Positions 2 through 44,481 of a stretch of 46,237 bases of DNA are shown here, in pieces; position 1 is the stretch's first letter; every line of letters starts with the position of its first letter. A program made the translations under genes and the position numbers. Below the pieces are notes generated by a model, which saw nothing but the letters and a program-made list of their open reading frames with translations, ran no database searches and was not told the origin of the DNA. Origin of the DNA: a virus; the IMG/VR virus record IMGVR_UViG_3300044998_001030, positions 1 through 46,237 of that record. One strand, 5' to 3'.

Positions 2-865
2 CCAAATATTATCTGGCGTTTTGCCAATAATGTTTCGGACAGAACCCGTTTAATGCTGGCTATTATCAATCATATCAAGCAGAATAAAGACGAAAAAGCA
101 GTCAAACAGGAATTGGATCAGCGTGCAATTGTTGATGTATTTTTTGATCTTTTAGATGTAATTTTGAGCAGCCGGACTTTAGCTAACATGGTAGCTCGCA
201 ATGCTGCTACAGCCGTTCTTTCTGAATCCAGTACACCAAAGAAAAAACGCCCCAAAAATCGGAAATCTGTACAGGATTCCATCACGCAGAAAATGGATAT
301 CTTATTGAAATTAGGGTTAGTTAGCAAAGACCTTTATGCTAGAACCAGAAAAGCATTAACTACATCTAAAAAGACAGCCGGATCTATTTCTATGTATCGG
401 AATTTACTTCTGGATTTGTTGGGAGATATTCTGGATTACATCAAGAGTGATACAACTATTTACAACAGAATCCGGCTGAAAGTCATGAAAGAAATGTCAT
501 TGAAAGATTATCCTACAAAGAAAATGTTGGAACAGGCATTTGAAGAGGGGTGCAAAGCAAAGCGTGCAGGAAAGAGATTCCGTATTCCTGAACAATACAA
601 AGATAATTGGGTTTTGCGAGATCAATTTGAACGAGGATACAAGAGTACTATTTTTGGTAAACCTCAAGAAGTAGAAACTGAAATTGAAGAAGATGTTTTA
701 AATGAAGTAACACCTCCCGATTTTCCTGAAGATTTGAAGAAAAAATTTCTAAAGCAATATAAAGACAGGCCACAGATGGCTTATGCCACAATGTGGATGA
801 TTCATAAACGGAAATTAGCAAAAAAGCAAAGAGAGGGACAAACCAATGAGAAGACATCTAAATGA
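2..865 (+). CDS. Hypothetical protein, 5' end outside window
   Basis: The reading frame is open to the left edge of the window (codons run in frame from base 2), so the first ATG at 53 is probably internal and the gene is 5'-truncated here. The protein is highly charged and mostly helical. A segment near residues 165-205 (EEGCKAKRAGKRF, then a Pro, then DQFERGYKS) has the spacing of the ribosome-modulation-factor-like motif, two helices ending in aromatic/Gly residues. That resemblance is weak. The C-terminus (DLKKKFLKQYKDRPQMAYA followed by a Lys-rich helix) is a type of tail seen in phage proteins of unknown role. It overlaps the next gene by 20 bases, indicating co-translation. Confidence 0.7.
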   Translation, partial: PNIIWRFANNVSDRTRLMLAIINHIKQNKDEKAVKQELDQRAIVDVFFDLLDVILSSRTLANMVARNAATAVLSESSTPKKKRPKNRKSVQDSITQKMDILLKLGLVSKDLYARTRKALTTSKKTAGSISMYRNLLLDLLGDILDYIKSDTTIYNRIRLKVMKEMSLKDYPTKKMLEQAFEEGCKAKRAGKRFRIPEQYKDNWVLRDQFERGYKSTIFGKPQEVETEIEEDVLNEVTPPDFPEDLKKKFLKQYKDRPQMAYATMWMIHKRKLAKKQREGQTNEKTSK

Positions 866-2279
866 AGAAATTCAAAAACTGACACCAGAAGAAGCTGAAA
901 GTTTGACACAAAAAACAAAGGAAGTTAGTGAAAAATTAGAAGAATTAGAACTAAAAGTTTTTGATTCTTTGGACGAAATGTTTGAAGCAGTCAATGAAAT
1001 TCTCAATGAAATGGGGTTTGCTATTGTTGTAGATGCTGCTGTTGATATTGCCAAAGATGTTTTTGAATATGCAGATGATGATGAAGTAACATTTGATATT
1101 CCAATTAAAGACGCCGAAAATCTAGAAGAAACAGTTGTACTTGAAGTACAAGAATCAGAAGATGAAGACTTCGTTGAGGGAGAACCTGTTCTTTCTTGTG
1201 AAATTGAAATGAATGATGATGGATCAGTAGCCGGAAAATTTGAGATGATTTTACTAGTATATGATACAAAAGATGATGAAGAAGTTGGAAAAGCTTTTGA
1301 TATGGATGTAGATGATTATGACGATAACGAAGAAGAATTGAAAGAGGCCTTTTTATCCGATAAATTTGATTACAAAGCATGGGGGTGGATTACACCAGAA
1401 GGAAAGTTGTTAGTTCCAACTTTGAAAGACAAACAATCTGAATCGGAAACTTATCATATTGTCTTTTTGGCTTCAAAATATCCCAAATTCAATACCGTCA
1501 AAAAGGCATTAAAAGCAGGTTTTATTCGCTGGTTCGTTGTTGGCCCGAAATTCACCAAAGAAGACAAAGATATCTTGGTATTTGAATTTGATATCAACAA
1601 AGTTGATGAAGAATTTCTTAAGAAAGGTGCTAGATTAGCTGAGAAATATCTAGAGAAATATCCAGATCCAGTTTTCCCCAGAAAGCCAATGTTTGTTTTT
1701 AAATATGCAGCAGATATTGTGAAAGGAAAAGGAAGAGGATATCAAGAAGCAGGAACTTTGAGTGCATTGCTGACTAAAGTTTTTTCCCTTAAAGAGGAAG
1801 ATGAAGTTGTTGACTCTGAAGAAGAAACATCAACACAAGATGTTGAAAAGAAAGAAGATTTGGGTAAATTATCTGTATATGATTTGATTCAAAATGCTAT
1901 TACAAACAGAATGTATGAATTAGGATTTGATATAGAGGATTTTACAAAAATTGAAGAAATTGCTAATAAACTAGTACAAGCGTTAGACAATGAACTTAAT
2001 GCAGACAGTGAAACAGACACAGAAGAAAAAGAAGAAAAAACACCGAAAGAAACTCCCAAAAATGAAGTAGAAGTATTTGAAGAAGTAGAGCCAAAATATT
2101 CTTGGGTAACTATTAGAACTAATTCAAAAACAATGACTTGCGTGGTAGATAGTGTTAATGAAAAATACATTAGAAAGACGATAAAAGAGCTATATCCAGA
2201 TGCTTCAATTCTTGAAATTTCTCCGGTTCATGTCATGTTTTTGCCAGAAATTGGCGCACAAAATACCGTTAATGACTAA
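846..2279 (+). CDS. Acidic protein with one WGW repeat domain
   Basis: This is a 477-residue protein. Residues 1-175 are strongly Asp/Glu-rich. Residues about 175-300 form one copy of a domain that recurs elsewhere in this window: KAWGWITPEGKLLVPT at 178-193, a conserved His in ETYHIVF, AGFIRW near 224-229, and a PDPVFP linker. The closest copy is repeat 7 of the 1185-residue protein at 10949-14506. A second Glu-rich linker leads to a small C-terminal domain. The start is preceded by GAGAGGG and overlaps the upstream gene. I know of no function. The same domain in a structural-cluster gene (34632-35237) suggests, but does not show, a virion or assembly role. Confidence 0.85.
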   Translation: MRRHLNEEIQKLTPEEAESLTQKTKEVSEKLEELELKVFDSLDEMFEAVNEILNEMGFAIVVDAAVDIAKDVFEYADDDEVTFDIPIKDAENLEETVVLEVQESEDEDFVEGEPVLSCEIEMNDDGSVAGKFEMILLVYDTKDDEEVGKAFDMDVDDYDDNEEELKEAFLSDKFDYKAWGWITPEGKLLVPTLKDKQSESETYHIVFLASKYPKFNTVKKALKAGFIRWFVVGPKFTKEDKDILVFEFDINKVDEEFLKKGARLAEKYLEKYPDPVFPRKPMFVFKYAADIVKGKGRGYQEAGTLSALLTKVFSLKEEDEVVDSEEETSTQDVEKKEDLGKLSVYDLIQNAITNRMYELGFDIEDFTKIEEIANKLVQALDNELNADSETDTEEKEEKTPKETPKNEVEVFEEVEPKYSWVTIRTNSKTMTCVVDSVNEKYIRKTIKELYPDASILEISPVHVMFLPEIGAQNTVND

Positions 2280-2667: not shown

Positions 2668-3312
2668 ATGACATTACGAGAAGAATTTTTACAATTATTA
2701 TTAGAAGGATCTTTTTCAAAGTTTTCGTTGACACCAAAATCGGCTTTTCGTTTATACCGTTGGTGTTTGGAAAACGACATTGTTGATCCATTGAAACCAG
2801 ATCAACTTCATCTTTCTTTCATTTATTCATCTGAAACTGATATTTCGCCTAGTGAATACAAAGAACATAAAGAACCAATTGTTCTAGAACCTCCATTTGA
2901 AATAGATATTTTCAAAAAATTTGGTAATACAGTTTCATTGGTAATTCTCAATGACCAAAAATTACAAAAAATGATACGATCTGTAATTGACAAATACAAA
3001 ATCAAACAGAATTTTCCTAAATATAGACCTCATATTACATTAAGTTACAATGGTATAGGGAATAAACATCTTGAAGGAAAACTAGATCCACCCAATTTTC
3101 CAATTGTAGTATATAATGAAAAACTTGAACCATTTGTGACAGATGCTAGAAAAAAAATCTATAAAATGAAAGAAGATGCGGGCGGTGAAGTTAGGCCTAT
3201 TTCTACTACTACTGCCGATATTGCTGTTCCTGAATGGCCCATAGGATTTACTATGAAAAAATTAAAAAATTTTAAGGGACGGTTAAAGAGGAAACAAAAT
3301 GGAAGACTTTAA
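2668..3312 (+). CDS. 2H phosphoesterase, Acb1-like anti-CBASS candidate
   Basis: The two hallmark motifs of the 2H phosphoesterase fold are present: H48-L-S50 in DQLHLSFIYS and H122-I-T124 in PHITLSYN, about 74 residues apart. The surrounding pattern (a helix before the first motif, then DIVDPLKPDQLH; a PKYRPHITLSY block) is like Acb1, the T4 57B family that hydrolyses cyclic oligonucleotide messengers to block CBASS immunity. 2H enzymes also include RNA ligase-type and 2',5'-phosphodiesterase members, so substrate is inferred. At 214 residues it is longer than T4 57B; the last 65 residues are a basic extension. It overlaps the next gene by 14 bases. Confidence 0.75.
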   Translation: MTLREEFLQLLLEGSFSKFSLTPKSAFRLYRWCLENDIVDPLKPDQLHLSFIYSSETDISPSEYKEHKEPIVLEPPFEIDIFKKFGNTVSLVILNDQKLQKMIRSVIDKYKIKQNFPKYRPHITLSYNGIGNKHLEGKLDPPNFPIVVYNEKLEPFVTDARKKIYKMKEDAGGEVRPISTTTADIAVPEWPIGFTMKKLKNFKGRLKRKQNGRL

Positions 3313-10948: not shown

Positions 10949-13900
10949 CTATTCTGAATTAGATGTTAACATTTTTCTCAAATGAGAATAGTTTTTTGCT
11001 AGAAATTCTTCTCCTTCACGAAATACAATGATATAATCTACTGTTAGTGGTTTTTCTGGAAATACTTCATCGGGTTTATCATCAAGAATCATTTTTGTAA
11101 TTTTCAATAGTTTTTGATTGTCTATTTTTTTGCTAACATCTATCAATAGTCCTATTTTTCCATCTCTATCTTTCTCAATCAACCAACGAATTCCACCATC
11201 TTCAACATATTCATCAATAGAGAAATATTTTCCTTCCGATTTTGGAATAATATCAGAATGAATGACAAAATCAGAACTATTCTTTTGTTCTAATGTTGGT
11301 TTGATCAATTTTCCTTTTTTTGTTACAATACCCCAAGCCAAATAAGTTGTGTGAAGAAATTTTTCTGATAAAGTTTTTTCGCTTTTTACTTTATTCAATA
11401 ATTGAATAACAGAATAAAACTTATAAAATTCACTATCTTTTTTTGGATAATAATAGAATGTTGTTTGTATTTTGTCAAAAAATTCTGGTTTTTTACGGAA
11501 AATTGGGTCTGGTTGTTTTTTCAAAAATGCTTGAATTTTGTCAATTCCTTTTCTGAGATTTTCTGGTTTGATTTTGTGTGGCATGAATGACAACCACAAA
11601 TCTGGAAATGTTTTGCCTCTTTCAATATGCCACCGCACAAAACCATCATCAAGCGCTTCAAGAATAGACTCATATTTTGGATAATGTTTTTGTAAGAAAA
11701 GTAAATGGACAATAGATTGTTCTGAATCTCTTTCTTCTTCTGTTGGAAGTAAAAGTCGGCCATCTGGAGTGATCCACCCCCAAGCCAAATAAAATCCATC
11801 CATTCCAAAAAATTCATTTAACTTTTCTTCATTATCTTCTTTTTCAATATAATCTTTAATTTTTCTTAGAAAATCATTTTTGTTATCGCTTCTTATTGTA
11901 GTATCAATTACATCTGCTTCATATTTGAATATTGCGGCGGGTTTATCAGGAAAAACTGGATCTGGCCGCTTTGATAAAAATTTTTCAATATTTTTGATTA
12001 TTTTGACAAGAGTATTATAATCAAAAATATCTAGACTTGGATCAAAATTCAAAACAAGTTTTGGTAAATTGCCGTAACCATATTCAATAAACCAGCGAAC
12101 AAATCCCATACCTAAAGCTTGCTTTCGTGAAATGTCCAACATATTATCATGAGTAAAATTGACATTTGGTGTTATTTTCATTACTTTTGATGGTAAAATC
12201 AATGTTCCATTAGGTCTAGCCCAACCCCAAACCAAATAATAATCTTCCATTTCAAAGTATTCATTTAGTTCAAATTTTTGTTTAAGTTTATTAATTAATT
12301 TGGTTTTGGATTTTGTAAGAGATTCTTTGATTTGAGTTTGAATCTTGGAAATCAGGTCTTCTTTTGTTTTGACTATGTATTTATCAACCCCGGCACGCAA
12401 ATTAATCTGGTATAAAGTTACCTTCAACGATTTCTTTTTCAGATAATTTTCAATGATTTGAATTTTCTCAAGAATTTCATCTTTTGTGAAAAATTCAGGC
12501 TCAAAATGCAGGTCTAGATAACTGCTGTCATAATCCCGAATCAAACTCCAAAAAATATAACCATTTTGATATGCGCCATAATAGGAATATTCAGATGGAA
12601 TAAGAATTCCATGATCTACCCTTGCCGCACCTTTGGGAGCAGGTTTGATTTTATTGTTTGGGGTCAAAACACCCCAAGCAAGAACATAACTGCTACCTGA
12701 ATAATATTCCGTAAGTGCAGCTTGAAGATTTCTCAACTTATTGAACAATTCTTGTTTTGATAAAGCGGAAATTGTTGTATTATCTGCATCACGATATTCT
12801 ATATTATAGTATCCAATAACTGGAGATTTGTAAGGAAATAATTCAACACCTTTTTCGCTTTCTAAAAATTTTTCAATCACATTAATAGCAGTCATCAACT
12901 CACGTTTTGAAACACGAGGATGAGCAGCAACGAACAACTTATTCGTCCCCATTGTTTTTTCTAGAGACCATTTGACTTTTTTGTTTCCCAATGCAGTCAT
13001 TTCATCTTCTTCTGGAACAATATCTGCATGATAAAAAATTGCATTTGATTGTTTCATTTTAAGTGTTGGTAAAATCAGTTTATAGTGATTTGGAATATCA
13101 ACCCAACCCCAAGCTAGATAGTATTTTTCCATCGGGAAATATTCTGTTATACCAACGGATTCCGACTCTTTTTTTACATTTTCTTCATATTTTCTCAATA
13201 ATTCAGATGGAGTTGAAGCCTTTATTCTATGATAAATTTGATTTTCGCTTTCATAATCCAGAAAATATTCATCAATATATGGCGGCTTTTCTGGAAAAAC
13301 TGGATCTGGTTGTTTCAAAAGATAATTTTCAATGATTTTAATTTTTTCTCTTAAATCTTCTTTTGGTAAATTTTTGTTACATTCTATAAATAACATAAAT
13401 TGGTTTTCCTTATCTTTTTCAACCTTCCAACGAATAAAACCCTGTTTCATAGACGTTTTATGTGTCAATTCTGTCGGTAATATTTCGGTATGGTTATAAT
13501 TCAATTCTGAATTTTTCATTTTCAATGTTGGAAGAATGAGTTTGTTTTTGTTGTCCACCCAACCCCAAGCCAAATAGTAATTTTCCATTTCAAAATATTC
13601 GTTTATCTGATTTAATTGTGCTTTATATTTTCTGATGAAATTAGAATCAAATGGAGCATCAATTTCGTATTTTTTTGCTTCATTTTCATTTTTCTTATCA
13701 TATCCGCTTATGTCTATTACAATTCTTTGTGGAAGGCTCAATTTTTCGTTTTTGATTATTTCAGCTTCTGTATTTTTGATAATATTTGAAACCAATTTTA
13801 ACCAGTTTTCTTTTCCTATTTCTTGAATATACTCAAACCATGCATTTAGCATTAATCTATCATCAGCCAAGACTAATCTGGTATATCCTTTTTGTCTTGC

Positions 13901-14506
13901 ATTTCCTTTATTAAGGTTACGATCTTTCAACACTGTACTTCCAAGATAATTAATCATTCCAGAATGACCTTCAAAATTGTTGTTCCAATCAAAAATCACT
14001 TGTCCTGTTTGATCTGCCCAACCAATGTAATTGAACAATTTCCATCCAGTATAATTTGATTCAGTTAATTTAATTTTTTCAGCTTCTATTTTTCGTTTCA
14101 AATCATTTGGTGTTTTTGCTGAAATTTCATGAAATTTGTTGTTTTTCTCGTATTCAAAAACATGATTTTCTGGTAAAGGAACAGGATTAGGAAATACTTT
14201 TGGGTTTACTTTATTAGTTGTAATTAAATTTTCAATTTCTTTCATACCAGAAAGAAAAGAAATAAGGTTAACCTTTTCAAGATTTTTTGTGAAATATGTA
14301 ATTTGTTTGGGATTTTTCTTTTCAATTAAAAACCGGATATATCCCTGTTTGAAAAGATCATTGATGTTTCCGTCTAAAAGATCGGCGTGTAAAATGATAT
14401 ATGATGAGTTTTTATCTTCTATTGTTGGTAAAATTAATTTACCTTTAGGATCTATCCAACCGAAAAAAAGATATGATGATAATAACTCTTCGTGTAGAAT
14501 TTTCAT
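10949..14506 (-). CDS. Eight-repeat WGW-domain protein, 1185 aa
   Basis: The protein is almost entirely made of eight copies of one domain of about 149 residues. The W/G cores lie at residues 17, 163, 314, 466, 611, 760, 909 and 1058. A typical unit runs: EYFEMEDYYLAWGW, P-x-G-K-L-I-L-P-T, a Ser about 8 residues on, a conserved His (NYNHTE, FYHADI, FTHDNM), G-F-[IV]-R-W, a strand, a helix ending IIENYL, and a linker PDPVFPEKP. Repeats 3, 4, 6 and 7 match best; 2 and 5 have drifted. There is no signal peptide, membrane segment or recognised catalytic motif. The ATG overlaps the stop of the 65-residue gene (TAATG). The function is unknown; a repeat scaffold or binding array is the simplest reading. 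Confidence 0.9.
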   Translation of the reverse strand: MKILHEELLSSYLFFGWIDPKGKLILPTIEDKNSSYIILHADLLDGNINDLFKQGYIRFLIEKKNPKQITYFTKNLEKVNLISFLSGMKEIENLITTNKVNPKVFPNPVPLPENHVFEYEKNNKFHEISAKTPNDLKRKIEAEKIKLTESNYTGWKLFNYIGWADQTGQVIFDWNNNFEGHSGMINYLGSTVLKDRNLNKGNARQKGYTRLVLADDRLMLNAWFEYIQEIGKENWLKLVSNIIKNTEAEIIKNEKLSLPQRIVIDISGYDKKNENEAKKYEIDAPFDSNFIRKYKAQLNQINEYFEMENYYLAWGWVDNKNKLILPTLKMKNSELNYNHTEILPTELTHKTSMKQGFIRWKVEKDKENQFMLFIECNKNLPKEDLREKIKIIENYLLKQPDPVFPEKPPYIDEYFLDYESENQIYHRIKASTPSELLRKYEENVKKESESVGITEYFPMEKYYLAWGWVDIPNHYKLILPTLKMKQSNAIFYHADIVPEEDEMTALGNKKVKWSLEKTMGTNKLFVAAHPRVSKRELMTAINVIEKFLESEKGVELFPYKSPVIGYYNIEYRDADNTTISALSKQELFNKLRNLQAALTEYYSGSSYVLAWGVLTPNNKIKPAPKGAARVDHGILIPSEYSYYGAYQNGYIFWSLIRDYDSSYLDLHFEPEFFTKDEILEKIQIIENYLKKKSLKVTLYQINLRAGVDKYIVKTKEDLISKIQTQIKESLTKSKTKLINKLKQKFELNEYFEMEDYYLVWGWARPNGTLILPSKVMKITPNVNFTHDNMLDISRKQALGMGFVRWFIEYGYGNLPKLVLNFDPSLDIFDYNTLVKIIKNIEKFLSKRPDPVFPDKPAAIFKYEADVIDTTIRSDNKNDFLRKIKDYIEKEDNEEKLNEFFGMDGFYLAWGWITPDGRLLLPTEEERDSEQSIVHLLFLQKHYPKYESILEALDDGFVRWHIERGKTFPDLWLSFMPHKIKPENLRKGIDKIQAFLKKQPDPIFRKKPEFFDKIQTTFYYYPKKDSEFYKFYSVIQLLNKVKSEKTLSEKFLHTTYLAWGIVTKKGKLIKPTLEQKNSSDFVIHSDIIPKSEGKYFSIDEYVEDGGIRWLIEKDRDGKIGLLIDVSKKIDNQKLLKITKMILDDKPDEVFPEKPLTVDYIIVFREGEEFLAKNYSHLRKMLTSNSE

Positions 14507-15962: not shown

Positions 15963-16967
15963 TTAGAAAAGATTACCTTCATTGATGTCTCCATTCAGAT
16001 TGTAAAGTAGTTCTTTGAACGACACTGTAAAAACGTCCTCAAATAGATTATACGGTACAACTTCCGTAGAGTAAAGATTTTTCAGAAATTTTATGAAATT
16101 TGGGTTTGAGAATTTTTCTCTCAAAACAGAAAGAATGATATCACAAGATTCTTGCTGTTTTTCTTCATCATACCAAATTGTCCACGGTCCATGTGCATAT
16201 TCTTGTGTAATAACAATATTAGACGACAACAAAGATACTAAATTTGTCCGGCCTAAAGATTCATAGCAATAATTCATGATGCTGTATTTTGGTGCAGAAA
16301 TATCAACAAAATGCAACGGATCGTGATTGAAAGGGGAATAGATTCCGACTAATGGGGTATGCTCTTGATCTTCAAAAATTTTGTAATATCTGAGAAAATG
16401 CATTGGTGGGTAATCTTTGTCTGCCAGCCGGGTGTAAATTGAAGAAAAAACAGATTTAAGTTCGTCCTTAGCTTTTTCTTTTGTTTTTGTTGTAATATCT
16501 GTAATAATTGAAGACCCAAAATGTGGAAATGTTGTATAAACTTTGACTGTTTGATTATCTGTTTTTCTTTCTAAACAAAAATCAATTGGCATATCAATAT
16601 CTGGAATCAATAGTGATTTTTCGGAGATAGTTGGAAGCGCTTCAAAAAAATCACCACCGACATAATAAAATGGATTGGTGAAAAGAATAGAAAGAGGAAT
16701 AAAGATTCTGATTTCATTGTCTGTTTCAAAAACACATGAATTTTTATGATAGGTTAAGTTTCGTAATGCAGTATTGATGTTATAAAAAGAAATATTGTTT
16801 TGTGTTAATTTTTGAAATTTTAGTTCTGATTGAACGTAATAAAAATACTTTTTGAAAAATTCCTCTTGTGTAATTTCTTCTATTTTCTTCTTAAATGTAT
16901 CAAAAACGAAGACTTTCTTGGTATCAAAAAAATTTTGCAACAAATTTGGTGTTTTTTGAAAATTCAT
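15963..16967 (-). CDS. Unknown protein, paralog A of tandem pair
   Basis: This 334-residue protein is similar along its whole length to the next gene upstream. Shared blocks are a helix ending in FF.K(F/Y).YY near residue 40, a central IFIPL, HFLRYYKIF/FFRFYSIF, and I.QEYAHG.W.I.(Y/H)(D/N)E, ending in (T)EV(V/I)P(Y/F)NLFED. I recognise no known family. The ATG overlaps the stop of its paralog, so they are co-translated. It converges on the SprT-like gene. Confidence 0.75.
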   Translation of the reverse strand: MNFQKTPNLLQNFFDTKKVFVFDTFKKKIEEITQEEFFKKYFYYVQSELKFQKLTQNNISFYNINTALRNLTYHKNSCVFETDNEIRIFIPLSILFTNPFYYVGGDFFEALPTISEKSLLIPDIDMPIDFCLERKTDNQTVKVYTTFPHFGSSIITDITTKTKEKAKDELKSVFSSIYTRLADKDYPPMHFLRYYKIFEDQEHTPLVGIYSPFNHDPLHFVDISAPKYSIMNYCYESLGRTNLVSLLSSNIVITQEYAHGPWTIWYDEEKQQESCDIILSVLREKFSNPNFIKFLKNLYSTEVVPYNLFEDVFTVSFKELLYNLNGDINEGNLF

Positions 16968-17953
16968 TAGATATTATCCCCTTTGCTTATTTCATTTAGG
17001 ATATCATCCATTGAAATGAGATTGATGTCTTCAAATAAATTGAATGGAATAACCTCAGTTGTTCCATAAATTTCAGTTAAAAATTTCACAAAATTTTTCC
17101 GTGAATAATAAGCACGGAGTGTTCCATAAATTTTTTCTGCTTCTTGTTTGTTGTGTTGATATTCATTATGAAAAATAAACCATTCACCGTGAGCATATTC
17201 TTGAACAATCAGAATTTTTTGTTTTACAATAGAAAACAAATTGAACGACCCATCAAAATCGGAATGATGAAATATAATATTTTCATCATTAATATTCATA
17301 AATTTTAATGGTTCGTTTCCATGTATATTATAGCTCCCAAGTAGTTTTGTTCTAATATTATTTACAAAAATTGAATAAAAACGGAAAAAATTAGAATATT
17401 TAAAATATCTTTCTTGTACTATTTCATTATTTCCGGAGATGGTCAAATCATTAATAAACATATTCAAAGATTTTTTGATGTCTTCTAAGGAAGTTACCGA
17501 CAAATCAAAAGTAGAAATTGCTCCCAATAAAGGAAGCATAAAATGAATTTTACAAGCAGTTTGTTTGTTAGTTTCAACAAGGATATGGTCAAAATGAGGA
17601 TAATCTACAGAAGAAAAGAAAGAAGAAATACTAAAAAAGTCACGATTCAAATAATTTAAAGATGATGAAAAAATTACATCTAATGGAATGAAAATATTTA
17701 ATTCATTATTACTTTTAAAAAAGCAGCCCAAGTTATCATGCGACAAATTATGCAATGCTAAATAGAAATTTTCATAATAGTTTAAAATATTTGATTTGGG
17801 TTGATGGGTGTTGACAGAAAACGAATAATAATGAAATTTATTAAAAAATTCTTGACGAGAAAATGTTTCTTCTTTTTGTGTTGATGAAAATATTGTTATT
17901 TTTTCTACGTCAATTGGTAAAACTGATAGGTTATCAGATAGCGAAAAGATCAT
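16967..17953 (-). CDS. Unknown protein, paralog B of tandem pair
   Basis: This 328-residue paralog of the following gene shares QEYAHGEWFIFHNE and TTEVIPFNLFED near the C-terminus. The conserved EYAHG block, with an invariant His and two acidic residues, is the best candidate for a functional site. AAGGAAA precedes the ATG. The pair looks like a tandem gene duplication that has diverged to moderate identity. Function unknown. Confidence 0.75.
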   Translation of the reverse strand: MIFSLSDNLSVLPIDVEKITIFSSTQKEETFSRQEFFNKFHYYSFSVNTHQPKSNILNYYENFYLALHNLSHDNLGCFFKSNNELNIFIPLDVIFSSSLNYLNRDFFSISSFFSSVDYPHFDHILVETNKQTACKIHFMLPLLGAISTFDLSVTSLEDIKKSLNMFINDLTISGNNEIVQERYFKYSNFFRFYSIFVNNIRTKLLGSYNIHGNEPLKFMNINDENIIFHHSDFDGSFNLFSIVKQKILIVQEYAHGEWFIFHNEYQHNKQEAEKIYGTLRAYYSRKNFVKFLTEIYGTTEVIPFNLFEDINLISMDDILNEISKGDNI

Positions 17954-18827: not shown

Positions 18828-18928
18828 GCCTTTTTTGAAAATTTTCAAATATTCAATCTCTATGGGGAAGTGGGGTATATTGGTAACGAAACGGAGAGCA
18901 GAGATGCAAGAAGGGTGCCCAGAACACT

Positions 18929-19036
18929 CTAGAATAGCCTATAACGAGCCGGAGAGGGGTTGGTAGGGGTCTGCCTAGGGGCGTTTTGCCGAACGCTTAT
19001 AGGCCATTCTAGCGCTTCATAAGCAGTTCTTATGAA
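18929..19036. other. Gene-free region with nested inverted repeats
   Basis: The 317-base gap between the divergently read unknown gene and the AT-hook gene contains strong inverted repeats. CTAGAATAGCCTATAA (18929-18944) pairs with TTATAGGCCATTCTAG (18997-19012), 15 of 16 positions Watson-Crick and one wobble or mismatch. GCGTT/AACGC (18981-18985/18992-18996) abuts the outer stem. TTCATAAG/CTTATGAA (19016-19023/19029-19036) has a 5-base loop. The region is GC-richer than most of the window. It could be a folded RNA or a DNA-level element. A weak plus-strand -10 (TATATT, 18876-18881) is the only promoter candidate. Confidence 0.5.
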
Positions 19037-19051
19037 AAGTTGAAATTTTAT

Positions 19052-19091
19052 AAAAATAAAAAGGGGAGGAAGGCCGAACGGCCTCCCTCCC
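19052..19091 (-). terminator. Rho-independent terminator of AT-hook gene
   Basis: On the minus strand a GC-rich hairpin (GGGAGG.AGGCC, loop GTTC, GGCCT.CCTCCC; one mismatch) is followed by a T-rich run (TTTTTATTTTT). It lies about 20 bases past the stop of the 148-residue gene. Confidence 0.85.
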
Positions 19092-19109: not shown

Positions 19110-19556
19110 CTAGTGGTTGTAGATTTCCTTCAGCTCCTTCTGGAGCATCTGGGCATAACCTGCCCAGAGATTGCGATACTGTGCGGGGATCACATAGAGA
19201 CCACGAACCTTCGTGGCTCCAACCTTCACAAAATTCAGCACATAGCTCACTGGCAGCGTGAGCTGCATGATGTCGGAACGGGAGAAAATCGCCTGATTGG
19301 GGAACTCCTTGCGGAGTGCCTCAATCGTTTCTTTCATCATGAGGGAGCGGTCAAAGGCGGGACGACCCCGGCCCTTCTTGGGGGCGGGAGCCGGAATTTC
19401 GGCGGCGGGAATCGGAACTTCTTCCACTGCCGGAGCAGCGGCTGGCTCCGTGACAACAACAGCTTCCTCAGCCGCAACCTTCGTGCGACGACGGGGGGCC
19501 TTCTTCTCTTCTGCCACCGGAGCGGCAGTCATCATCTCGTTCATCGTGGTTTCCAT
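19110..19556 (-). CDS. Ala/Pro-rich protein with AT-hook motif
   Basis: Residues 1-60 are a disordered Ala/Pro/Glu/Lys tract (KKAPRRRTK, then repeats of AP/AE). They are followed by K61-G-R-G-R-P66, a textbook AT-hook core for minor-groove binding to AT-rich DNA. A C-terminal domain of about 75 residues (FPNQAIFSRSDIMQ, VSYVLNFVKVGATKVRG) may be a winged-helix-like fold. Its coding sequence is the most GC-rich in the window. It has its own consensus promoter, a 67-base leader with AAGGAG, and a strong terminator, so it is a well-expressed single gene. A nucleoid or transcription modulator is the best guess. Confidence 0.8.
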   Translation of the reverse strand: METTMNEMMTAAPVAEEKKAPRRRTKVAAEEAVVVTEPAAAPAVEEVPIPAAEIPAPAPKKGRGRPAFDRSLMMKETIEALRKEFPNQAIFSRSDIMQLTLPVSYVLNFVKVGATKVRGLYVIPAQYRNLWAGYAQMLQKELKEIYNH

Positions 19557-19689: not shown

Positions 19690-20133
19690 CTAACTCTTTG
19701 ATTTTGAAGAAGTTTTTCTTCTCGTCTTCTTCTCTATCATATACTCAGCTTCTGGAAACGCGGGCTGTTGGGCAAACTCACCATAGAATGATAAGTAGAA
19801 GTCTCTGTCTCTGTAATATGTGCGAGGATTTGCATATTTGAAGATTTCATGTTTTGTTGGAACGTACCACGCATCATATTCACTATGATAGTAGTCGTCT
19901 TTGTATAGAAGCAAATGTCCAAATTCATGAATTAATAGATGTATGCATCTCTCAATGAAACGTTTCTTTTTAAGTTTCGTTTTTTCTGGAAGTTCTAAAA
20001 TAATTACTCTTTCATCAAGAATGACTGTAGCATCTGGACTCCCGTCTTGGCAGAAAGAGTTTGTTTCTATTAATACATTTACATTCTTTTTCTTAAGATA
20101 TTTTATAAGTCTATGAAATTTTCGGTCTTGCAT
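19690..20133 (-). CDS. HEFGH zincin-fold protein
   Basis: The metalloprotease motif H69-E-F-G-H73 (IHLLIHEFGHLLLYKDD) is followed by an acidic SEYDAW segment that could supply the third ligand, an arrangement like ImmA/IrrE and other HExxH proteins. The C-terminus is very basic (KKTRRKTSSKSKS). The target is unknown. The gene is AT-rich, unlike the AT-hook gene it follows. A sigma70-like promoter lies so close that the leader would be about 4 bases; no ribosome binding site is seen. Confidence 0.75.
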   Translation of the reverse strand: MQDRKFHRLIKYLKKKNVNVLIETNSFCQDGSPDATVILDERVIILELPEKTKLKKKRFIERCIHLLIHEFGHLLLYKDDYYHSEYDAWYVPTKHEIFKYANPRTYYRDRDFYLSFYGEFAQQPAFPEAEYMIEKKTRRKTSSKSKS

Positions 20134-20220: not shown

Positions 20221-20248
20221 TTGACATCTCAGCTGAACGTGCTATACT
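20221..20248 (+). promoter_or_regulatory. Strong sigma70-type promoter for structured RNA
   Basis: TTGACA (20221-20226), a 16-base spacer and TATACT (20243-20248) are on the plus strand. Transcription should begin near G20255, which is exactly the first base of a 7-bp closing helix. No reading frame follows, so the product is an RNA. Confidence 0.85.
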
Positions 20249-20254
20249 GAAAAT

Positions 20255-20475
20255 GTAAACGGTAGCGGCTAGAACAAAAAAAAAAACAAAACGGTTCTAG
20301 GCTGCTGTAGCGCAATAAAGCGCTCCCTGTTGCGCTAGCCAGAATACTAGCACACGTTCTGGCACGTTTACCAACGCCAATGGCGTTGCGGGGAGGGAGG
20401 AGAGCTAGCTCCTCCCGACCCTGAAGAAAAAACAAAAAAATAGCCCCCACTCAGAGTGGGGGCTATTGAATTTTG
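20255..20475 (+). ncRNA. Structured non-coding RNA, about 220 nt, unknown class
   Basis: Helices read directly from the sequence are listed here. P1 is GTAAACG (20255-20261) with CGTTTAC (20365-20371). P2 is 20262-20275 with 20294-20308, 14 pairs with one bulged G, closed by an A-rich 18-base loop. P3 is TAGCGCAA (20308-20315) with TTGCGCTA (20330-20337). P4 is GCCAGAA (20338-20344) with TTCTGGC (20357-20363). P5 is CAACGCC/GGCGTTG (20372-20388). P6 is GGGAGGAG/CTCCTCCC (20395-20416). The terminator hairpin follows. P1-P4 make a closed four-way junction with hardly any unpaired bases. No known RNA family is recognised. It lies upstream of tRNA-Arg. Confidence 0.82.
20439..20475 (+). terminator. 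Rho-independent terminator of the structured RNA
   Basis: AATAGCCCCCACT pairs with AGTGGGGGCTATT (13 bp; tight loop CAG), preceded by an A-run and followed by a T-containing tract (GAATTTTG). Weak read-through to the tRNA is possible. Confidence 0.85.
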
Positions 20476-20503
20476 TATAAATATTTGAATTTTGTATAAA
20501 TAT
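20466..20503 (+). repeat. 19-bp tandem repeat with two late promoters
   Basis: TTGAATTTTGTATAAATAT occurs twice head to tail (20466-20484, 20485-20503), identical. Each copy contains a perfect TATAAATA late promoter (20476-20483 and 20495-20502). The second ends 12 bases before tRNA-Arg, so the tRNA could be transcribed late by gp55-RNA polymerase independently of the RNA promoter upstream. Confidence 0.85.
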
Positions 20504-20514
20504 TATAAAAACAT

Positions 20515-20592
20515 GCTCCCGTAGCTCAATGTGGATAGAGCACCTGCCTTCTAAGCAGGTGGTTGCAGGTTCAAGTCCTGCCGGGAGTACCA
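20515..20592 (+). tRNA. tRNA-Arg(TCT)
   Basis: Acceptor GCTCCCG/CGGGAGT (G1-T72 wobble), D-arm with GCTCAATGTGGATAGAGC, anticodon stem CCTGC/GCAGG with loop CTTCTAA (anticodon TCT), T-arm GCAGG TTCAAGT CCTGC, discriminator A and an encoded CCA. It reads AGA/AGG codons, which are frequent in this AT-rich phage. Confidence 0.96.
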
Positions 20593-20621: not shown

Positions 20622-21779
20622 TCATCTTTGATTTAGACTCTCCACTTTTTTCCGAAGACGATTCAATTTCATATCGTATTTTTTCAACCAATTATCAAAT
20701 ACTCTTACAAACCAATTTTTGATTTTTGCAAAAATACCAGTATTTTCTTCGGCCTCGTTGAAAAATGGTGTGGCTTTAACGGTGGGCTCAAGTTGAGTAA
20801 TAGTAGTATATTTTTCAACAAGTTCATTATATTTTTCAACTAATTCTGGAAACATTTCAAGTAATTCATCCAATACCTGTTTATAAGCCACATTCTTTCT
20901 AGGAGCCGGATCTTTGGAAATTGTCAAAATCAAACTGAGAGTCTGAATTTTTCTGGTTTTCAGTTTATCTTCAGCTTGATCAAAAATATCCACAATTTTT
21001 TCGTTGCGGATGTTATCTTTGACTTCTTCTTTCAGTTCTTTGAGTCGGCGTTCGGCTTCTTCAATTTCCAATAATTTCTTGCCAATTTTTGTAAAAATTT
21101 CAGATTCTTTTCCTGTAACTTTGGCGATAACTTCTTTGCTCCCGCGTTCAATTTCTATGGCTTCTTTAAACATTTTGAAAGATTTTTTTTCAGTAATTTG
21201 TTTTTTCAGATTCATATATTCATTATAGAATTGTGTTCTTTTTGATTCTAATTTGTTAATAAAATCAGTGATTTTATCTTCCAATCCATCCAAAATTGGA
21301 TATAGAATATGTTTTCTATACCATTCTGGATTATATTCATCATCCCTTCTTCCTTCATCTCTTGTGTATTCAAGGTAATCAAGATAATCGTTTTTTTCTT
21401 CTCTGAGTTTGCTGTTATTGACATCAAATATAATATAGGGGCCAAAGGATTTGTAATCTTTTTCGGGATCATCGGACAATTCTTCATCCCAATCACGGGT
21501 TTGAATTTTTCCGGTTGAATAAAATTCAAATAATGGATTTGGTACTAGAAAACTGAGACTAAAGCGATCCACATATTTTCTGTGATCTGTAATTTCATTT
21601 TCAAACCACTCTTCCATAAATTTATTGATTTTTTCTATTTCAAATACTTTAGTAAAAGGAATAAATTTCAAAATTGATGCCAGATTAGTTAATGACAATT
21701 CTAGATTATAATAGTCTTTTGAAACTTCAGAAATTACAGCAAAAACAAATTTGTTGATATCGTCTTGATAATAAAACAC
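20622..21779 (-). CDS. Unknown protein downstream of major capsid gene
   Basis: This 385-residue protein has a GTG start with GGAG 8 bases upstream. The N-terminal 160 residues are mixed alpha/beta with acidic patches. Residues about 165-270 form a coiled coil, and the C-terminus is helical and basic. It occupies the place where T4 carries gp24 (the vertex protein, a gp23 paralog) but shows no resemblance to gp23. It has its own exact late promoter between the MCP terminator and its start. A virion or assembly role is likely from position only. Confidence 0.75.
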   Translation of the reverse strand: MFYYQDDINKFVFAVISEVSKDYYNLELSLTNLASILKFIPFTKVFEIEKINKFMEEWFENEITDHRKYVDRFSLSFLVPNPLFEFYSTGKIQTRDWDEELSDDPEKDYKSFGPYIIFDVNNSKLREEKNDYLDYLEYTRDEGRRDDEYNPEWYRKHILYPILDGLEDKITDFINKLESKRTQFYNEYMNLKKQITEKKSFKMFKEAIEIERGSKEVIAKVTGKESEIFTKIGKKLLEIEEAERRLKELKEEVKDNIRNEKIVDIFDQAEDKLKTRKIQTLSLILTISKDPAPRKNVAYKQVLDELLEMFPELVEKYNELVEKYTTITQLEPTVKATPFFNEAEENTGIFAKIKNWFVRVFDNWLKKYDMKLNRLRKKVESLNQR

Positions 21780-30714: not shown

Positions 30715-32295
30715 CTAAAAATTCCATCTTTCAATGACAATTCCATCATCTTTTTCTTGTCCATTTTCAAAGAAAAACGGGATAATTGGTTCTTCTTTTT
30801 CTTTCAATAATTCTTGCCTAATATCCTTATTTATCAATTCTTTGAAATACTCTTCGTTAATGGCCCAAGACAGTAAAATCAAAGGAGTTATCAAATCATC
30901 ATGAGAATCTACATCAGCCGAAAACGAATCTCCTTTTTTGACAAAATTATACAATTCTAATAAAATGTCATCTGTCCAATTGACAATTTTTTGTTCTTCT
31001 ACTAATGTTTTGAAGAGAGAACAACCCCGGCGTTTAACTGATTTCGTCATTTCAACACCAAGATATTTGTTTTTTCCCTTTCCAAAAGTCAGAATTTGCC
31101 CCATTTTTTGTTTTGTTTTTGTTGAAAAAATTTCTTCATATTCAAGATCATTATAGAGAATTTCTGCTACATCCATACCATTTGCATTTCTTTCAATAAG
31201 AGCAAAAGCATTATTATATTTTTTACATATTCTAAAAATTTCATCTGGAAATACTAGAGGAGAAATTTTGTTACTCCGATAAGTTGCAACAATTTGTAAT
31301 GGAAATTCTGTTACATCTACTACAATAATAGTAGAATAATCACGTCCTACACCACGCGAAACGTCAATACAAGCAATGTAAAAATGATCTTTTTTTGGTT
31401 CTTCAATAATCATCAAATCTTCATTGATTTTTTCATATTTTTCCACAGAAGTCAATGATTTTAAAACACTTGGACGGATAAGAGTGTTAGATGAACCAAT
31501 AAATTCGTTACCATATTCTTGCGCAAATCCATCTTCTCCTAAAATGGAAACTTGCTGTCTTTTCCATTCCTCATCTCTGCCTTCAACTTCCCACCAATCA
31601 ACTTTGACTGGTGTGAAACCATTTTTGTTTTTGACCGCCTCATTCCACAATGAATAGAATAAATTCAAACCATTCGGCGTGCTTGAAATGATAATCTTTG
31701 AAGTTTTACCGGAAGTGATTGTAGGATAAGAAGATGTAAAAAATTCAACCGCATTTGGAACGTGAGCAAATTCGTCTAAATATAGAAAATTGATTGAGTA
31801 ACCACGAATAGATTTTGATGTTGTTGCATCAGCTACAATTCTGGAATTATTGGCAAATTCAACTGAACCACGGTTCAAAACCTTTGCACCCGGCTGCAAG
31901 AAAAATGGTAACTCCTCTAACATCAATAAGATACGGCTAAGAATTTCAATAGCAGTAGCTTTTCTGTTAGCTAAAATAGCTACAGTTTTATCTGGAGTAA
32001 AACACACATACCACAAAATGAATGCAGCGGTAGTTGTGGTTTTACCAGATTGTCTGGCAGATAGAAGAATTACTCTCAAATCATTTTTATAAGTTTCAAT
32101 CAATTTTCTTTGATAGCCGCGTAATTTGAACGGCTGTAATCCATGATCTAAAGTGTTGATTTTTACATATTTTTCAATAAAATACACCGGATCTTGCGAA
32201 CAACGAATATACTCTTCAACTTGTTCTTTAGTATACTCTTCTTTTAAATTTGCTTTTTTGATTTTTGGGTTTAAATAATAATCTTTTTCGCTCAT
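30715..32295 (-). CDS. 17: Large terminase gp17
   Basis: This is the packaging ATPase/nuclease. Walker A SARQSGKT is at 79-86, Walker B FLYLDE at 170-175, and a coupling motif at ISSTPNGLN (about 204-212). The C-terminal RNase H-like nuclease has IDVSRGVGRDYSTIIV (D311, D319) and a late acidic DSHDDLI. At 526 aa it is shorter than T4 gp17 (610), mainly at the N-terminus. Its ATG overlaps the stop of the CCA-adding enzyme gene (ATGA). Confidence 0.96.
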   Translation of the reverse strand: MSEKDYYLNPKIKKANLKEEYTKEQVEEYIRCSQDPVYFIEKYVKINTLDHGLQPFKLRGYQRKLIETYKNDLRVILLSARQSGKTTTTAAFILWYVCFTPDKTVAILANRKATAIEILSRILLMLEELPFFLQPGAKVLNRGSVEFANNSRIVADATTSKSIRGYSINFLYLDEFAHVPNAVEFFTSSYPTITSGKTSKIIISSTPNGLNLFYSLWNEAVKNKNGFTPVKVDWWEVEGRDEEWKRQQVSILGEDGFAQEYGNEFIGSSNTLIRPSVLKSLTSVEKYEKINEDLMIIEEPKKDHFYIACIDVSRGVGRDYSTIIVVDVTEFPLQIVATYRSNKISPLVFPDEIFRICKKYNNAFALIERNANGMDVAEILYNDLEYEEIFSTKTKQKMGQILTFGKGKNKYLGVEMTKSVKRRGCSLFKTLVEEQKIVNWTDDILLELYNFVKKGDSFSADVDSHDDLITPLILLSWAINEEYFKELINKDIRQELLKEKEEPIIPFFFENGQEKDDGIVIERWNF

Positions 32296-33833
32296 TTTTC
32301 TTCTTTTTTGTTATGAGTCATAATCATACTTTTTGCTAAAGCAATTGCATCTTTTTTGGTAAAATTTGGATTTTCAATGACTTTTTCAAGAATTCGGGAC
32401 TTGATTTCACCAATCAATTTTCCTTTTGCTCCCATAGCCGCAATTTCTTCACCCGTCAATAAAGATTTAGAATTTACCAAATCTTCAATGTTTATTTCTT
32501 TAATCATTTCGCGGATTTTTTCAATTTGTTTTGGCATAGATGCAGCTTCAGAATGAGAAATATTATCTGCATGAATAACATCTAAAATTGGCTCTAAAAC
32601 ATCGGCCACATGATAAACAAATTTTCGTAAAGTTTTTTCTTTCAAATTTTCAGCTTCGCTTCCAGCTTGTTTCAATTTCATATGATTCTTGACTATTTTT
32701 GTAATTTTATCAATATCAGAATTGGAATAATTTAGTCGTTTCATGATTTGCCGTGTAATTTCCGCACCAACCTCTGCATGATTAATGAACTGAATTTTTC
32801 CATCTTTTTCACTTCGTGTAGCAGCTTTTCCGATATCATGGAAAAGTGCTGCAAGCCGTCTGGTAATTTCTGGTGGAGTATTATCTAGAACATCAAGTGT
32901 ATGAGTAAAAGCATCATGTTTATGATAAGTGACGTTTTGTGTTAAACCAACCAATTCTTTCAATTCTGGTAAGATAATATCCAAAATTCCGGTTATCTTA
33001 AACAATCTAATAGCTCTGGATGGTTTTTCCAAAAGTAGAATTTTGTGTAATTCGTCTTTGATTCTTTCCGAAGAAATATTGTTCAGTTCTGAAGCATGAT
33101 TCTTGATAGAACGAATTACATCCAACGGAAGTTTGAAATTATATTTCAAAGCAAACCGGATTGCCCGTAAAATGCGGAGCGGATCTTCCTTGAAAATCCA
33201 ATCTGGATCTCCTGTTGTTCTGATAATTTTAGCTTTCAAATCTTCAATTCCCATGCCAGTTAAATCGTAGATTTCTCCGCTAGTCAAATTTTGGAATAGT
33301 GAATTGATGGTGAAATCTCTGCGAAATGCATCATCACGCAATGTTGCTGGTTCTACTTCTGGCTTTCGGCTTCCGGGAGTATATTTTTCTTTCCTAGGCG
33401 CAATAAACTCAATTTCAACCATTTCGCCTTTAATTGGAATTTTCAATTTTGCTGTACCAAATTTCTCAAATACAACTGGATTAGATCCTTCTTTGTAGAC
33501 ACCAACTTGTTGTGCAATAAACTTGGCGGCTTCAATTCCGGCATCAATACCTCCATCTACAACAATATCAACATCTTTTGGAGTTCTGCCCATAATTTTA
33601 TCACGAACGATTCCACCCGCCAGATACAATTTGTTTTCCCATTCAGTTCCAGCAATAATATTTTTGAGAAATTCAATGACAGTATCTACGTCAACTTCTT
33701 CTCTAAGATGCTTGAAATATTGAACTTGTCGTTCGCGCTTTAGAGCATCTTCTTTTTTGTCATAAGGCCCACCAAGTTTACGCCCTGTTTTTTTACTGAA
33801 AAGATAGTATTTGTTATGTATTTTTCTAATCAT
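32292..33833 (-). CDS. CCA-adding enzyme / poly(A) polymerase family with HD domain
   Basis: This is a class II tRNA nucleotidyltransferase. LAGGIVRD is at 71-78, catalytic D87-V-D89, RRDFTINSLF at 171-180, then the helical neck and body with DPLRILRAIRFA, and an HD phosphohydrolase domain with ALFHDIGKAATR (H332-D333). The first 45 residues are extra: KYYLFSKKTGRKLGGPYDKK followed by a Lys/Arg helix with RQVQYFKH, a module I know from other phage proteins but not from cellular CCA enzymes. It is inserted between gp16 and gp17 and overlaps both, so it is made with the packaging proteins. It could repair tRNA 3' ends. Confidence 0.92.
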   Translation of the reverse strand: MIRKIHNKYYLFSKKTGRKLGGPYDKKEDALKRERQVQYFKHLREEVDVDTVIEFLKNIIAGTEWENKLYLAGGIVRDKIMGRTPKDVDIVVDGGIDAGIEAAKFIAQQVGVYKEGSNPVVFEKFGTAKLKIPIKGEMVEIEFIAPRKEKYTPGSRKPEVEPATLRDDAFRRDFTINSLFQNLTSGEIYDLTGMGIEDLKAKIIRTTGDPDWIFKEDPLRILRAIRFALKYNFKLPLDVIRSIKNHASELNNISSERIKDELHKILLLEKPSRAIRLFKITGILDIILPELKELVGLTQNVTYHKHDAFTHTLDVLDNTPPEITRRLAALFHDIGKAATRSEKDGKIQFINHAEVGAEITRQIMKRLNYSNSDIDKITKIVKNHMKLKQAGSEAENLKEKTLRKFVYHVADVLEPILDVIHADNISHSEAASMPKQIEKIREMIKEINIEDLVNSKSLLTGEEIAAMGAKGKLIGEIKSRILEKVIENPNFTKKDAIALAKSMIMTHNKKEEK

Positions 33834-42953: not shown

Positions 42954-43709
42954 TTATATCTCTAAGTCATAATCACTATGACCGAAAACAAAATCAGACA
43001 TATCGTGCAATTCTAGGTTGCAAATATATTTCAATTTTTCAATATTTGGAACCAATTTAGCGTTGTAGCCGACAGCAGGATAAAACCAATTTCCCGGAAC
43101 CATTCGGAACCAATATTTCAATACCGAATCATTTTTTGAATAATAGATATTAAACTTGGTGTTAGTATTGTCGGTTATTTCGTTTCGTTTTTCAACAAAT
43201 TCTTTAATATTGATTGCTGGAGCTAGCCACTTCCAATTCGCAATATTTTTTGTTTTTGAATTGAAAACAACATCACACCCCAACGAATGGCTGGAAATAG
43301 TAATTGATCCGCATTTTCCTAATTTTTGTTGTTGTTCTAGCATCTTAATCAAATCATACAAATGCCCCGATGTTTCTGGAACCCGCTTTTTGGCTCCGAT
43401 GAAACCAATGGTAGAACTCCACGAACTGGGCCAATAGAAAAAGATGAAAGTATTATATTTTTTGCTTACACGATTCAGATTGAAAATTTTGAAATATTTG
43501 TTTTGAACGTTAGAAAAAATTCCACGATAACCATGAACCAAAACAACAACGTTTCTAAGCGAACCTTGTGTTATGCTCTTATCAAAAAAGACATCGTAAC
43601 CCGTTGAATAAAAAGAAGTTTCTTTTTCGTCTACTCTACGGTATAATAGATTGTCTGAAAATTCTACTGGATCTGTAAAATTTTTTCTGCAAGAAAATTC
43701 AAAAATCAT
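42954..43709 (-). CDS. Alpha/beta hydrolase
   Basis: Start at ATG 43709 (AAGGAG 9 bases upstream); an ATG at 43772 would extend into the Thg1-like gene and lacks a binding site. The oxyanion strand VVVLVHGYRG (54-63) and nucleophile elbow ISSHSLG with S142 match the DUF900/esterase-like branch of the fold, and FVFGHSDYD near the end offers the catalytic His. Substrate unknown; lipid or host-surface ester hydrolysis is possible. Confidence 0.8.
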   Translation of the reverse strand: MIFEFSCRKNFTDPVEFSDNLLYRRVDEKETSFYSTGYDVFFDKSITQGSLRNVVVLVHGYRGIFSNVQNKYFKIFNLNRVSKKYNTFIFFYWPSSWSSTIGFIGAKKRVPETSGHLYDLIKMLEQQQKLGKCGSITISSHSLGCDVVFNSKTKNIANWKWLAPAINIKEFVEKRNEITDNTNTKFNIYYSKNDSVLKYWFRMVPGNWFYPAVGYNAKLVPNIEKLKYICNLELHDMSDFVFGHSDYDLEI

Positions 43710-44481
43710 TAGTTTTTTCTCCTTCCAGCTTGACGATATTATATTCTTCAAATAGTGCCCGAATTTGACCAAAAACGTTTTCGGGCGGATTGACGTGTCT
43801 TTGTGTGAACCACACCCCGTCCACTTTCATTCTAAATCCCATATGATAAAATGGAAAGAAAAAACTTCCCTTTCCATAAATTTCAAGATACTTCTGAATT
43901 TCTTTCTGTTTTGTGGTAATTTTTCGGGAGCTATACAAATATGAAGGCTGATAGAAATGCACAAACCGATTCAATACGTTTCGGTATGCGTCTTTTACCC
44001 TCCACACAAAATAATTGAGTACCTCTTCTGGCTTATCATCTGGAAGACCGAAACAGCGGCAATCAAATACTGGAACATGAAGATTACTAACATCATTCAA
44101 AGATTCTGATTTTTTTGCTGTTTCTGGAAGAAATTTGTTGAAATAATATGTGAAATAAGATGCCGTAACAGAATTGATTTTATTGACTTTTCCATTAAAC
44201 CAGTGTTGTGTATTATTTTCTTTTTTTGCCTGCAAAAGAAAAGAACACTCATCGGATTGAGGATAATAAGCCACACAATTTTGTACTGAAAGCGCAGTAT
44301 AAAATGCAGCCTGATTCATCGCCGAAACAACATCTTCCGAATAAAAGTGTTGTTCGTTCAAATAGCGGAATATATGTGAAAACGCCTTTCCGTCAACCCG
44401 AACCACAATAAAGTCATTTGTAATTTTTTGAGAACATTGTTCTTCGTAAAGTTTCATTCTATTTTCTAATGTATCTCTCAT
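43699..44481 (-). CDS. Thg1-like 3'-5' nucleotidyltransferase
   Basis: tRNA-His guanylyltransferase-like protein. The metal-binding motifs are V-R-V-D30-G31-K-A-F-S-H and S76-D77-E78-C-S-F-L-L, plus VFDCRCFGLP, all diagnostic of the family. The length (260 aa) fits. Thg1-like proteins add nucleotides to 5' ends in the 3'-5' direction and repair truncated tRNAs. It has its own consensus promoter with the ATG 6 bases after the -10 box and no ribosome binding site, so the message is predicted leaderless. Confidence 0.92.
   Translation of the reverse strand: MRDTLENRMKLYEEQCSQKITNDFIVVRVDGKAFSHIFRYLNEQHFYSEDVVSAMNQAAFYTALSVQNCVAYYPQSDECSFLLQAKKENNTQHWFNGKVNKINSVTASYFTYYFNKFLPETAKKSESLNDVSNLHVPVFDCRCFGLPDDKPEEVLNYFVWRVKDAYRNVLNRFVHFYQPSYLYSSRKITTKQKEIQKYLEIYGKGSFFFPFYHMGFRMKVDGVWFTQRHVNPPENVFGQIRALFEEYNIVKLEGEKTNDF

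What the first reader, a model, noticed from the sequence alone, without database searches (positions are those of the whole stretch)
20255..20475. Candidate new structured phage RNA with own promoter and terminator
A TTGACA/TATACT promoter places the start at the first base of a 7-bp helix that closes a four-way junction of three further helices (7 to 14 pairs), followed by two more hairpins and a strong terminator. Almost every base from 20255 to 20416 lies in a helix or its loop, apart from short linkers, and no reading frame is present. The A-rich 18-base loop of P2 is a natural protein or RNA contact site. I do not recognise a known family. Possible roles are host RNA polymerase or ribosome control, defence decoy, or packaging RNA.
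Basis: partly seen in the sequence, partly recalled or inferred. Interest (0 to 1): 0.8.

Follow-up and report, generated by a model that had tools for sequence, protein, structure and literature searches.

The report
Orphan structured RNA in T4-like phage
A T4-like virus of bacteria carries, in a gap next to a tRNA gene, what looks like a short non-coding RNA gene with its own start signal and an unusually tight fold; no relative was found in any collection searched, so it is probably a real and new RNA, but its fold is not yet confirmed by evolution and its job is unknown.

Summary
At 20255-20475 (+) a TTGACA-16-TATACT promoter with extended -10 (the only such match in the window) sits 7 nt before a helix that closes a compact four-way junction (P1-P4), followed without linkers by two hairpins (P5, P6). 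The fold is far beyond chance: z -7.5 for P1-P6 and -5.0 for P1-P4 (0 of 4000 shuffles each), and clearly better on the + strand. Per base it is the most stable intergenic stretch among 171 records (1.7 Mb), mostly relatives. There is no + strand reading frame.

Corrections: the terminator's good U tract is on the opposite strand, where it ends the late head operon; the neighbouring tRNA-Arg has its own T4-type late promoters; four-way topology alone is not unusual.

No Rfam family, no similar sequence in phages, plasmids, viral or genome contigs, and no convincing covariance-model hit in 100 records, so covariation could not be tested. Nearest analogues are T4 rnaC/rnaD (beside a tRNA-Arg, function unknown) and, loosely, GOLLD/ROOL; it is a member of neither by the tests run.

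Best reading: an early, autonomous, orphan structured phage RNA, most likely a stable protein-binding (decoy or scaffold) RNA. The mechanism is inferred, not shown.

The parts
20221..20248 (+). Promoter: TTGACA, 16 nt, TATACT, extended -10 (TGC)
   Evidence: bases 20240-20258 recur 18 of 19 in the promoter-like site of gene 19110-19556
20255..20371 (+). Four-way junction domain: P1 closing P2, P3, P4; predicted +1 at G20255
   Evidence: z -5.0, 0 of 4000 shuffles
20276..20293 (+). A-rich 18-nt loop of P2, candidate protein contact (inferred)
   Evidence: Sequence
20372..20423 (+). Hairpins P5 and P6, abutting P1 and each other
   Evidence: z -5.8, 0 of 4000 shuffles
20439..20467 (.). Bidirectional terminator hairpin; good U tract on the - strand (end of late head operon), weaker on the + strand
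20466..20503 (+). Two tandem 19-bp repeats, each with TATAAATA (T4-type late promoter motif), upstream of the tRNA; neighbour, not part of the RNA
20515..20592 (+). tRNA-Arg (anticodon TCT) with encoded CCA; neighbour, probably a separate late unit
   Evidence: and sequence

Best explanation
The element is a stand-alone non-coding RNA gene of a T4-like myovirus. Supported by the sequence: a near-consensus host-type promoter places G20255, the first base of helix P1, at about +1, and the transcript folds as a compact four-way junction plus two abutting hairpins, followed by a bidirectional terminator ending near 20475. Inferred: it is made early by host RNA polymerase; it is long-lived because its 5' end and nearly all bases lie in helices; and it acts in trans as a protein-binding RNA, offering the A-rich 18-nt loop of P2 and the P3/P4 loops to a host or phage protein as decoy or scaffold. 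It is probably not a leader of the tRNA, which has its own late-type promoters. My estimate is about 0.8 for 'a real structured ncRNA' alone and about 0.45 for the whole statement with the protein-binding mechanism.
For: Best promoter of the window ends 7 nt before P1. Fold z -7.5 for P1-P6 and -5.0 for P1-P4, 0 of 4000 shuffles, complement strand -4.5 and -2.4. First of 557 intergenic windows. No + strand ORF of 20 aa or more. P1-P6 lies beyond the end of the converging late transcript, so it is not part of that terminator. Single copy. Loops do not pair with phage translation starts better than shuffled loops, which argues against a base-pairing regulator of these genes.
Against: One sequence only; no relative and so no covariation. 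No expression data. The + strand U tract is weak, so the 3' end is uncertain. No protein partner is known; protein binding is inferred from anatomy only.
Confidence: 0.45

Rival explanations
1. A self-assembling RNA: kissing loops make it a dimer or higher oligomer, a small analogue of what GOLLD and ROOL do. P3 carries a 6-nt palindrome (AGCGCU) in its loop, and the P4 and P6 loops are complementary (CUAGC/GCUAG), which could also be an intramolecular tertiary contact.
For: Loop matches; two such matches together in 0.24% of shuffled loop sets. GOLLD, ROOL and OLE form RNA-only oligomers with kissing loops, and GOLLD/ROOL lie near phage tRNA islands (PMC12286853).
Against: Noticed after looking at the loops; the best single match is not unusual (8.6% of shuffles). 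The RNA is far smaller than those classes and matches none of them.
Confidence: 0.15
2. A trans-acting base-pairing small RNA or a cis antisense RNA: its 3' part overlaps the 3' end of the converging late head operon, and the A-rich loop and linker could pair with U-rich tails.
For: Convergent arrangement with a shared terminator; the A-rich piece of the P2 loop is repeated in the linker (family D3).
Against: No loop pairs with any of the phage's translation starts better than shuffled loops. The overlap with the late transcript is only the terminator and A-rich linker, while P1-P6 lies outside it. Host targets could not be tested because the host is unknown.
Confidence: 0.15
3. Not a functional RNA: a cluster of inverted repeats in a variable intergenic region that happens to fold well and lies behind a promoter of little consequence.
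For: One sequence only, no conservation shown. Four-way loops occur elsewhere in MFE folds of the window. CTAG occurs five times in the element.
Against: z -7.5, 0 of 4000 shuffles, and a strand asymmetry that DNA palindromes alone would not give; the best promoter of the window ends at P1; phage intergenic space is scarce.
Confidence: 0.15
4. A long 5' leader of tRNA-Arg: promoter 20221 reads through the weak + strand terminator and the structured part helps processing of the tRNA.
For: Same strand, tRNA 40 nt past the hairpin; weak + strand U tract.
Against: Two TATAAATA late promoters lie directly before the tRNA, so it does not need the upstream promoter.
Confidence: 0.08

Closest known systems
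Phage T4 rnaC and rnaD (species 1 and 2 stable RNAs)
   Same: Small stable non-coding RNAs of a T4-type phage lying beside a tRNA-Arg gene; function unknown (PMC3014915, PMC12685909).
   Different: T4 order is tRNA-Arg, rnaD, rnaC packed within a few bases; here the RNA is upstream and the tRNA has its own late-type promoters. T4 rnaC/rnaD were classed late (PMC9697503), this one has a host-type early-looking promoter. Folds differ and model R1 does not match T4.
GOLLD and ROOL RNAs
   Same: Ornate phage RNAs of unknown function often near tRNA genes, with loop-loop contacts (PMC12286853).
   Different: They are several times longer; no Rfam match here; oligomerisation of this RNA is untested.
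phi29-type packaging RNA (pRNA)
   Same: Short phage RNA of similar length with a helix junction and loop-loop complementarity (pRNA features from general knowledge).
   Different: No Rfam match; this phage is a T4-like myovirus with a recognised terminase large subunit; four-way rather than three-way junction.

Membership tests
Any curated RNA family (Rfam 15) | Score at or above the family's gathering threshold | tested here: not met
   Only tRNAs reach threshold in the window; at E up to 10 no family reaches its gathering score at 20255-20475
T4 rnaC/rnaD | Sequence or structure similarity to T4 rnaC/rnaD | tested here: not met
   Model R1 finds nothing in the T4 genome; predicted folds differ; distant blastn of 20249-20475 gives no T4-type match
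T4 rnaC/rnaD | Stable RNA encoded next to phage tRNA-Arg | tested here: met
   tRNA-Arg(TCT) at 20515-20592; T4 layout. Position only; stability is not tested
GOLLD / ROOL | Match to the Rfam models | tested here: not met
GOLLD / ROOL | Homo-oligomer through kissing loops | not testable with these tools
   Only loop complementarity seen
phi29-type packaging RNA | Match to the Rfam pRNA family | tested here: not met
Autonomous structured phage ncRNA (general kind) | Own promoter, significant fold, no reading frame | tested here: met
Autonomous structured phage ncRNA (general kind) | Covariation across relatives | tested here: inconclusive
   No relative found, so no alignment to test
Autonomous structured phage ncRNA (general kind) | A detected transcript | not testable with these tools
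   No expression data held

The most novel reading that the evidence does not exclude
A new class of small ornate phage RNA, made early by host polymerase, that assembles through loop-loop contacts and captures a host factor or defence component through its A-rich loop.
Probability: 0.12. Interest if true: 0.85.

Novelty: new variant of a known kind. Interest (0 to 1): 0.5.

Why it matters
T4-type phages are long known to make small structured RNAs (rnaC, rnaD) whose function is still unknown, and family libraries miss them: Rfam does not recognise rnaC or rnaD either. A compact, single-copy example with a clean host-type promoter, lying outside the tRNA transcript, is a convenient model because it can be expressed by itself and used to fish for its partner. 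If it binds a host factor it would add to the short list of phage RNAs that act in trans.

Tried and rejected
Distant blastn in phages and plasmids: only tRNA or terminator matches or chance pieces. Pattern for the P1 pair with the -10 box in viral contigs: 5 hits, none resembling the element when read and folded (three are the same stretch in three contigs), rejected as chance. Patterns for the 5' end and for the P3 hairpin: no hits. Covariance model R1 (built from the one sequence, so insensitive to distant relatives): the full-length match of 11.3 bits in L016/L169 lies inside a 582-aa ORF and breaks many pairs, chance; a match of the same score in another contig (L182) and an A-rich hairpin piece in HTVC008M were not followed up. 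Neighbour genes 20622-21779 and 19690-20133 have no relatives in viral contigs and gene 16967-17953 none either, so synteny could not supply homologs. Structure scan of relatives: the only stretch more extreme by stability corrected for composition is a long inverted repeat in L075. CsrA-sponge reading: GGA triplets lie in stems, not loops (by eye). Loop-to-translation-start pairing: none above chance.

Full report
What was checked. The window is a virus record of 46,237 bases from a T4-like myovirus: portal, scaffold and major head protein, tail sheath, terminase large subunit and the SbcC/SbcD-like (gp46/gp47-type) nuclease subunits are all recognised. The closest capsid proteins found are about 60% identical, so this phage has no near relative in the collections used; near-identical records may have been left out by the tools.

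The element. Reading 20221-20475 on the + strand gives TTGACA, 16 nt, TATACT with TG before the -10. It is the only match of this quality in the window. The bases from the -10 to about +4 (TGCTATACTGAAAATGTAA) recur, 18 of 19, in the promoter-like site of the neighbouring gene 19110-19556, so the two may belong to one early class; that is inference. G20255, 7 nt after the -10, is the first base of P1. P1 closes P2, P3 and P4 with only two unpaired bases in the junction, and P5 and P6 follow with no linker at all.

Is the fold more than chance? Yes. MFE is -103.5 kcal/mol for 20255-20475, z -9.1. The terminator inflates this, so the parts were tested alone with 4000 dinucleotide shuffles: P1-P4 z -5.0, P1-P6 z -7.5, P5-P6 z -5.8, none of 4000 as stable. 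The complement strand is clearly worse (P1-P4 z -2.4, P1-P6 z -4.5), as expected if the G-U pairs of P2, P3, P4 and P6 matter, which points to the + strand as the RNA. Across the window the most stable 165-nt stretches given their G+C content are here, and among 557 intergenic windows of 171 records this ranks first by MFE per base. A caution: compact four-way loops also occur in MFE folds elsewhere in this window, so the topology carries no weight; helix length and perfection do.

What surrounds it. The terminator hairpin 20439-20467 has its good U tract on the - strand and is best read as the end of the head-gene operon that converges from 21779; on the + strand it may or may not stop the polymerase. 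P1-P6 lies beyond the end of that transcript. After the terminator come two tandem 19-bp repeats, each with TATAAATA, the T4 late promoter motif, then tRNA-Arg(TCT) with encoded CCA. TATAAATA is over-represented (11 against 4.1 expected, 1 of 100 shuffles) and four of the sites sit 20-44 nt upstream of head-region genes, so the tRNA is probably a late unit separate from the RNA. In three annotated relatives (HTVC008M, Mosig, Melnitz-3) the capsid gene is followed by other genes, with no tRNA or RNA annotated there, and no tRNA was found in 19 of 20 related loci scanned.

Relatives. Rfam: none. Phage and plasmid collections: none. Pattern scans: chance or nothing. A single-sequence covariance model over 100 records including T4, HTVC008M, Mosig and Melnitz-3: best E 0.047; the hit examined closely lies in a coding frame. 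Covariation therefore could not be tested. This is the main weakness.

Function. Loops do not pair with phage translation starts better than shuffled loops. P3 has a 6-nt palindromic loop and the P4/P6 loops are complementary over 5 nt; the pair of matches is unusual (0.24% of shuffles) but was noticed after the fact, and the best single match is not unusual (8.6%). The A-rich P2 loop is an obvious protein site, untested. I judge an early, stable, protein-binding RNA most likely: 0.45 for the full statement, about 0.8 for 'a real structured ncRNA' alone.

Comparison. T4 rnaC/rnaD adjoin tRNA-Arg and have unknown roles (PMC3014915, PMC12685909), but fold differently, are not matched by the model and were classed late (PMC9697503). 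GOLLD and ROOL are phage RNAs near tRNA islands that form cages with kissing loops (PMC12286853), far larger and not matched. The element resembles these in setting and is a member of none by the tests run.

Noticed in passing
18860-19063, - strand: A second long non-coding gap with a long hairpin (CUAGAAUGGCCUAUAA / UUAUAGGCUAUUCUAG), z -3.8 on the - strand, -1.0 on the + strand; no match in phages; no clear promoter seen.
   Followed up: partly
43699-44481 and 32292-33833, - strand: A Thg1-type tRNA-His guanylyltransferase and a CCA-adding/poly(A)-polymerase-type tRNA nucleotidyltransferase, the latter beside the terminase gene: an unusual set of tRNA end-maturing or repair enzymes for a phage with few tRNAs in this fragment.
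   Followed up: no
2668-3312, + strand: Match to the anti-CBASS protein Acb1 family (Pfam, E 1.7e-12).
   Followed up: no
20466-20503, + strand: Two perfect tandem 19-bp repeats, each carrying a TATAAATA late-promoter motif, directly upstream of tRNA-Arg.
   Followed up: partly
L075:14850-14985: A related viral contig has an intergenic inverted repeat with very long arms (MFE -80.6 per 160 nt), possibly a mobile or termination element.
   Followed up: no
10949-14506 (-) and 846-2279 (+): A 1185-aa protein built of repeats of a 'YYLAWGW...LILPT' stretch, which also appears once in the 477-aa protein at 846-2279; the 1185-aa protein has no Pfam match, the other was not scanned.
   Followed up: no
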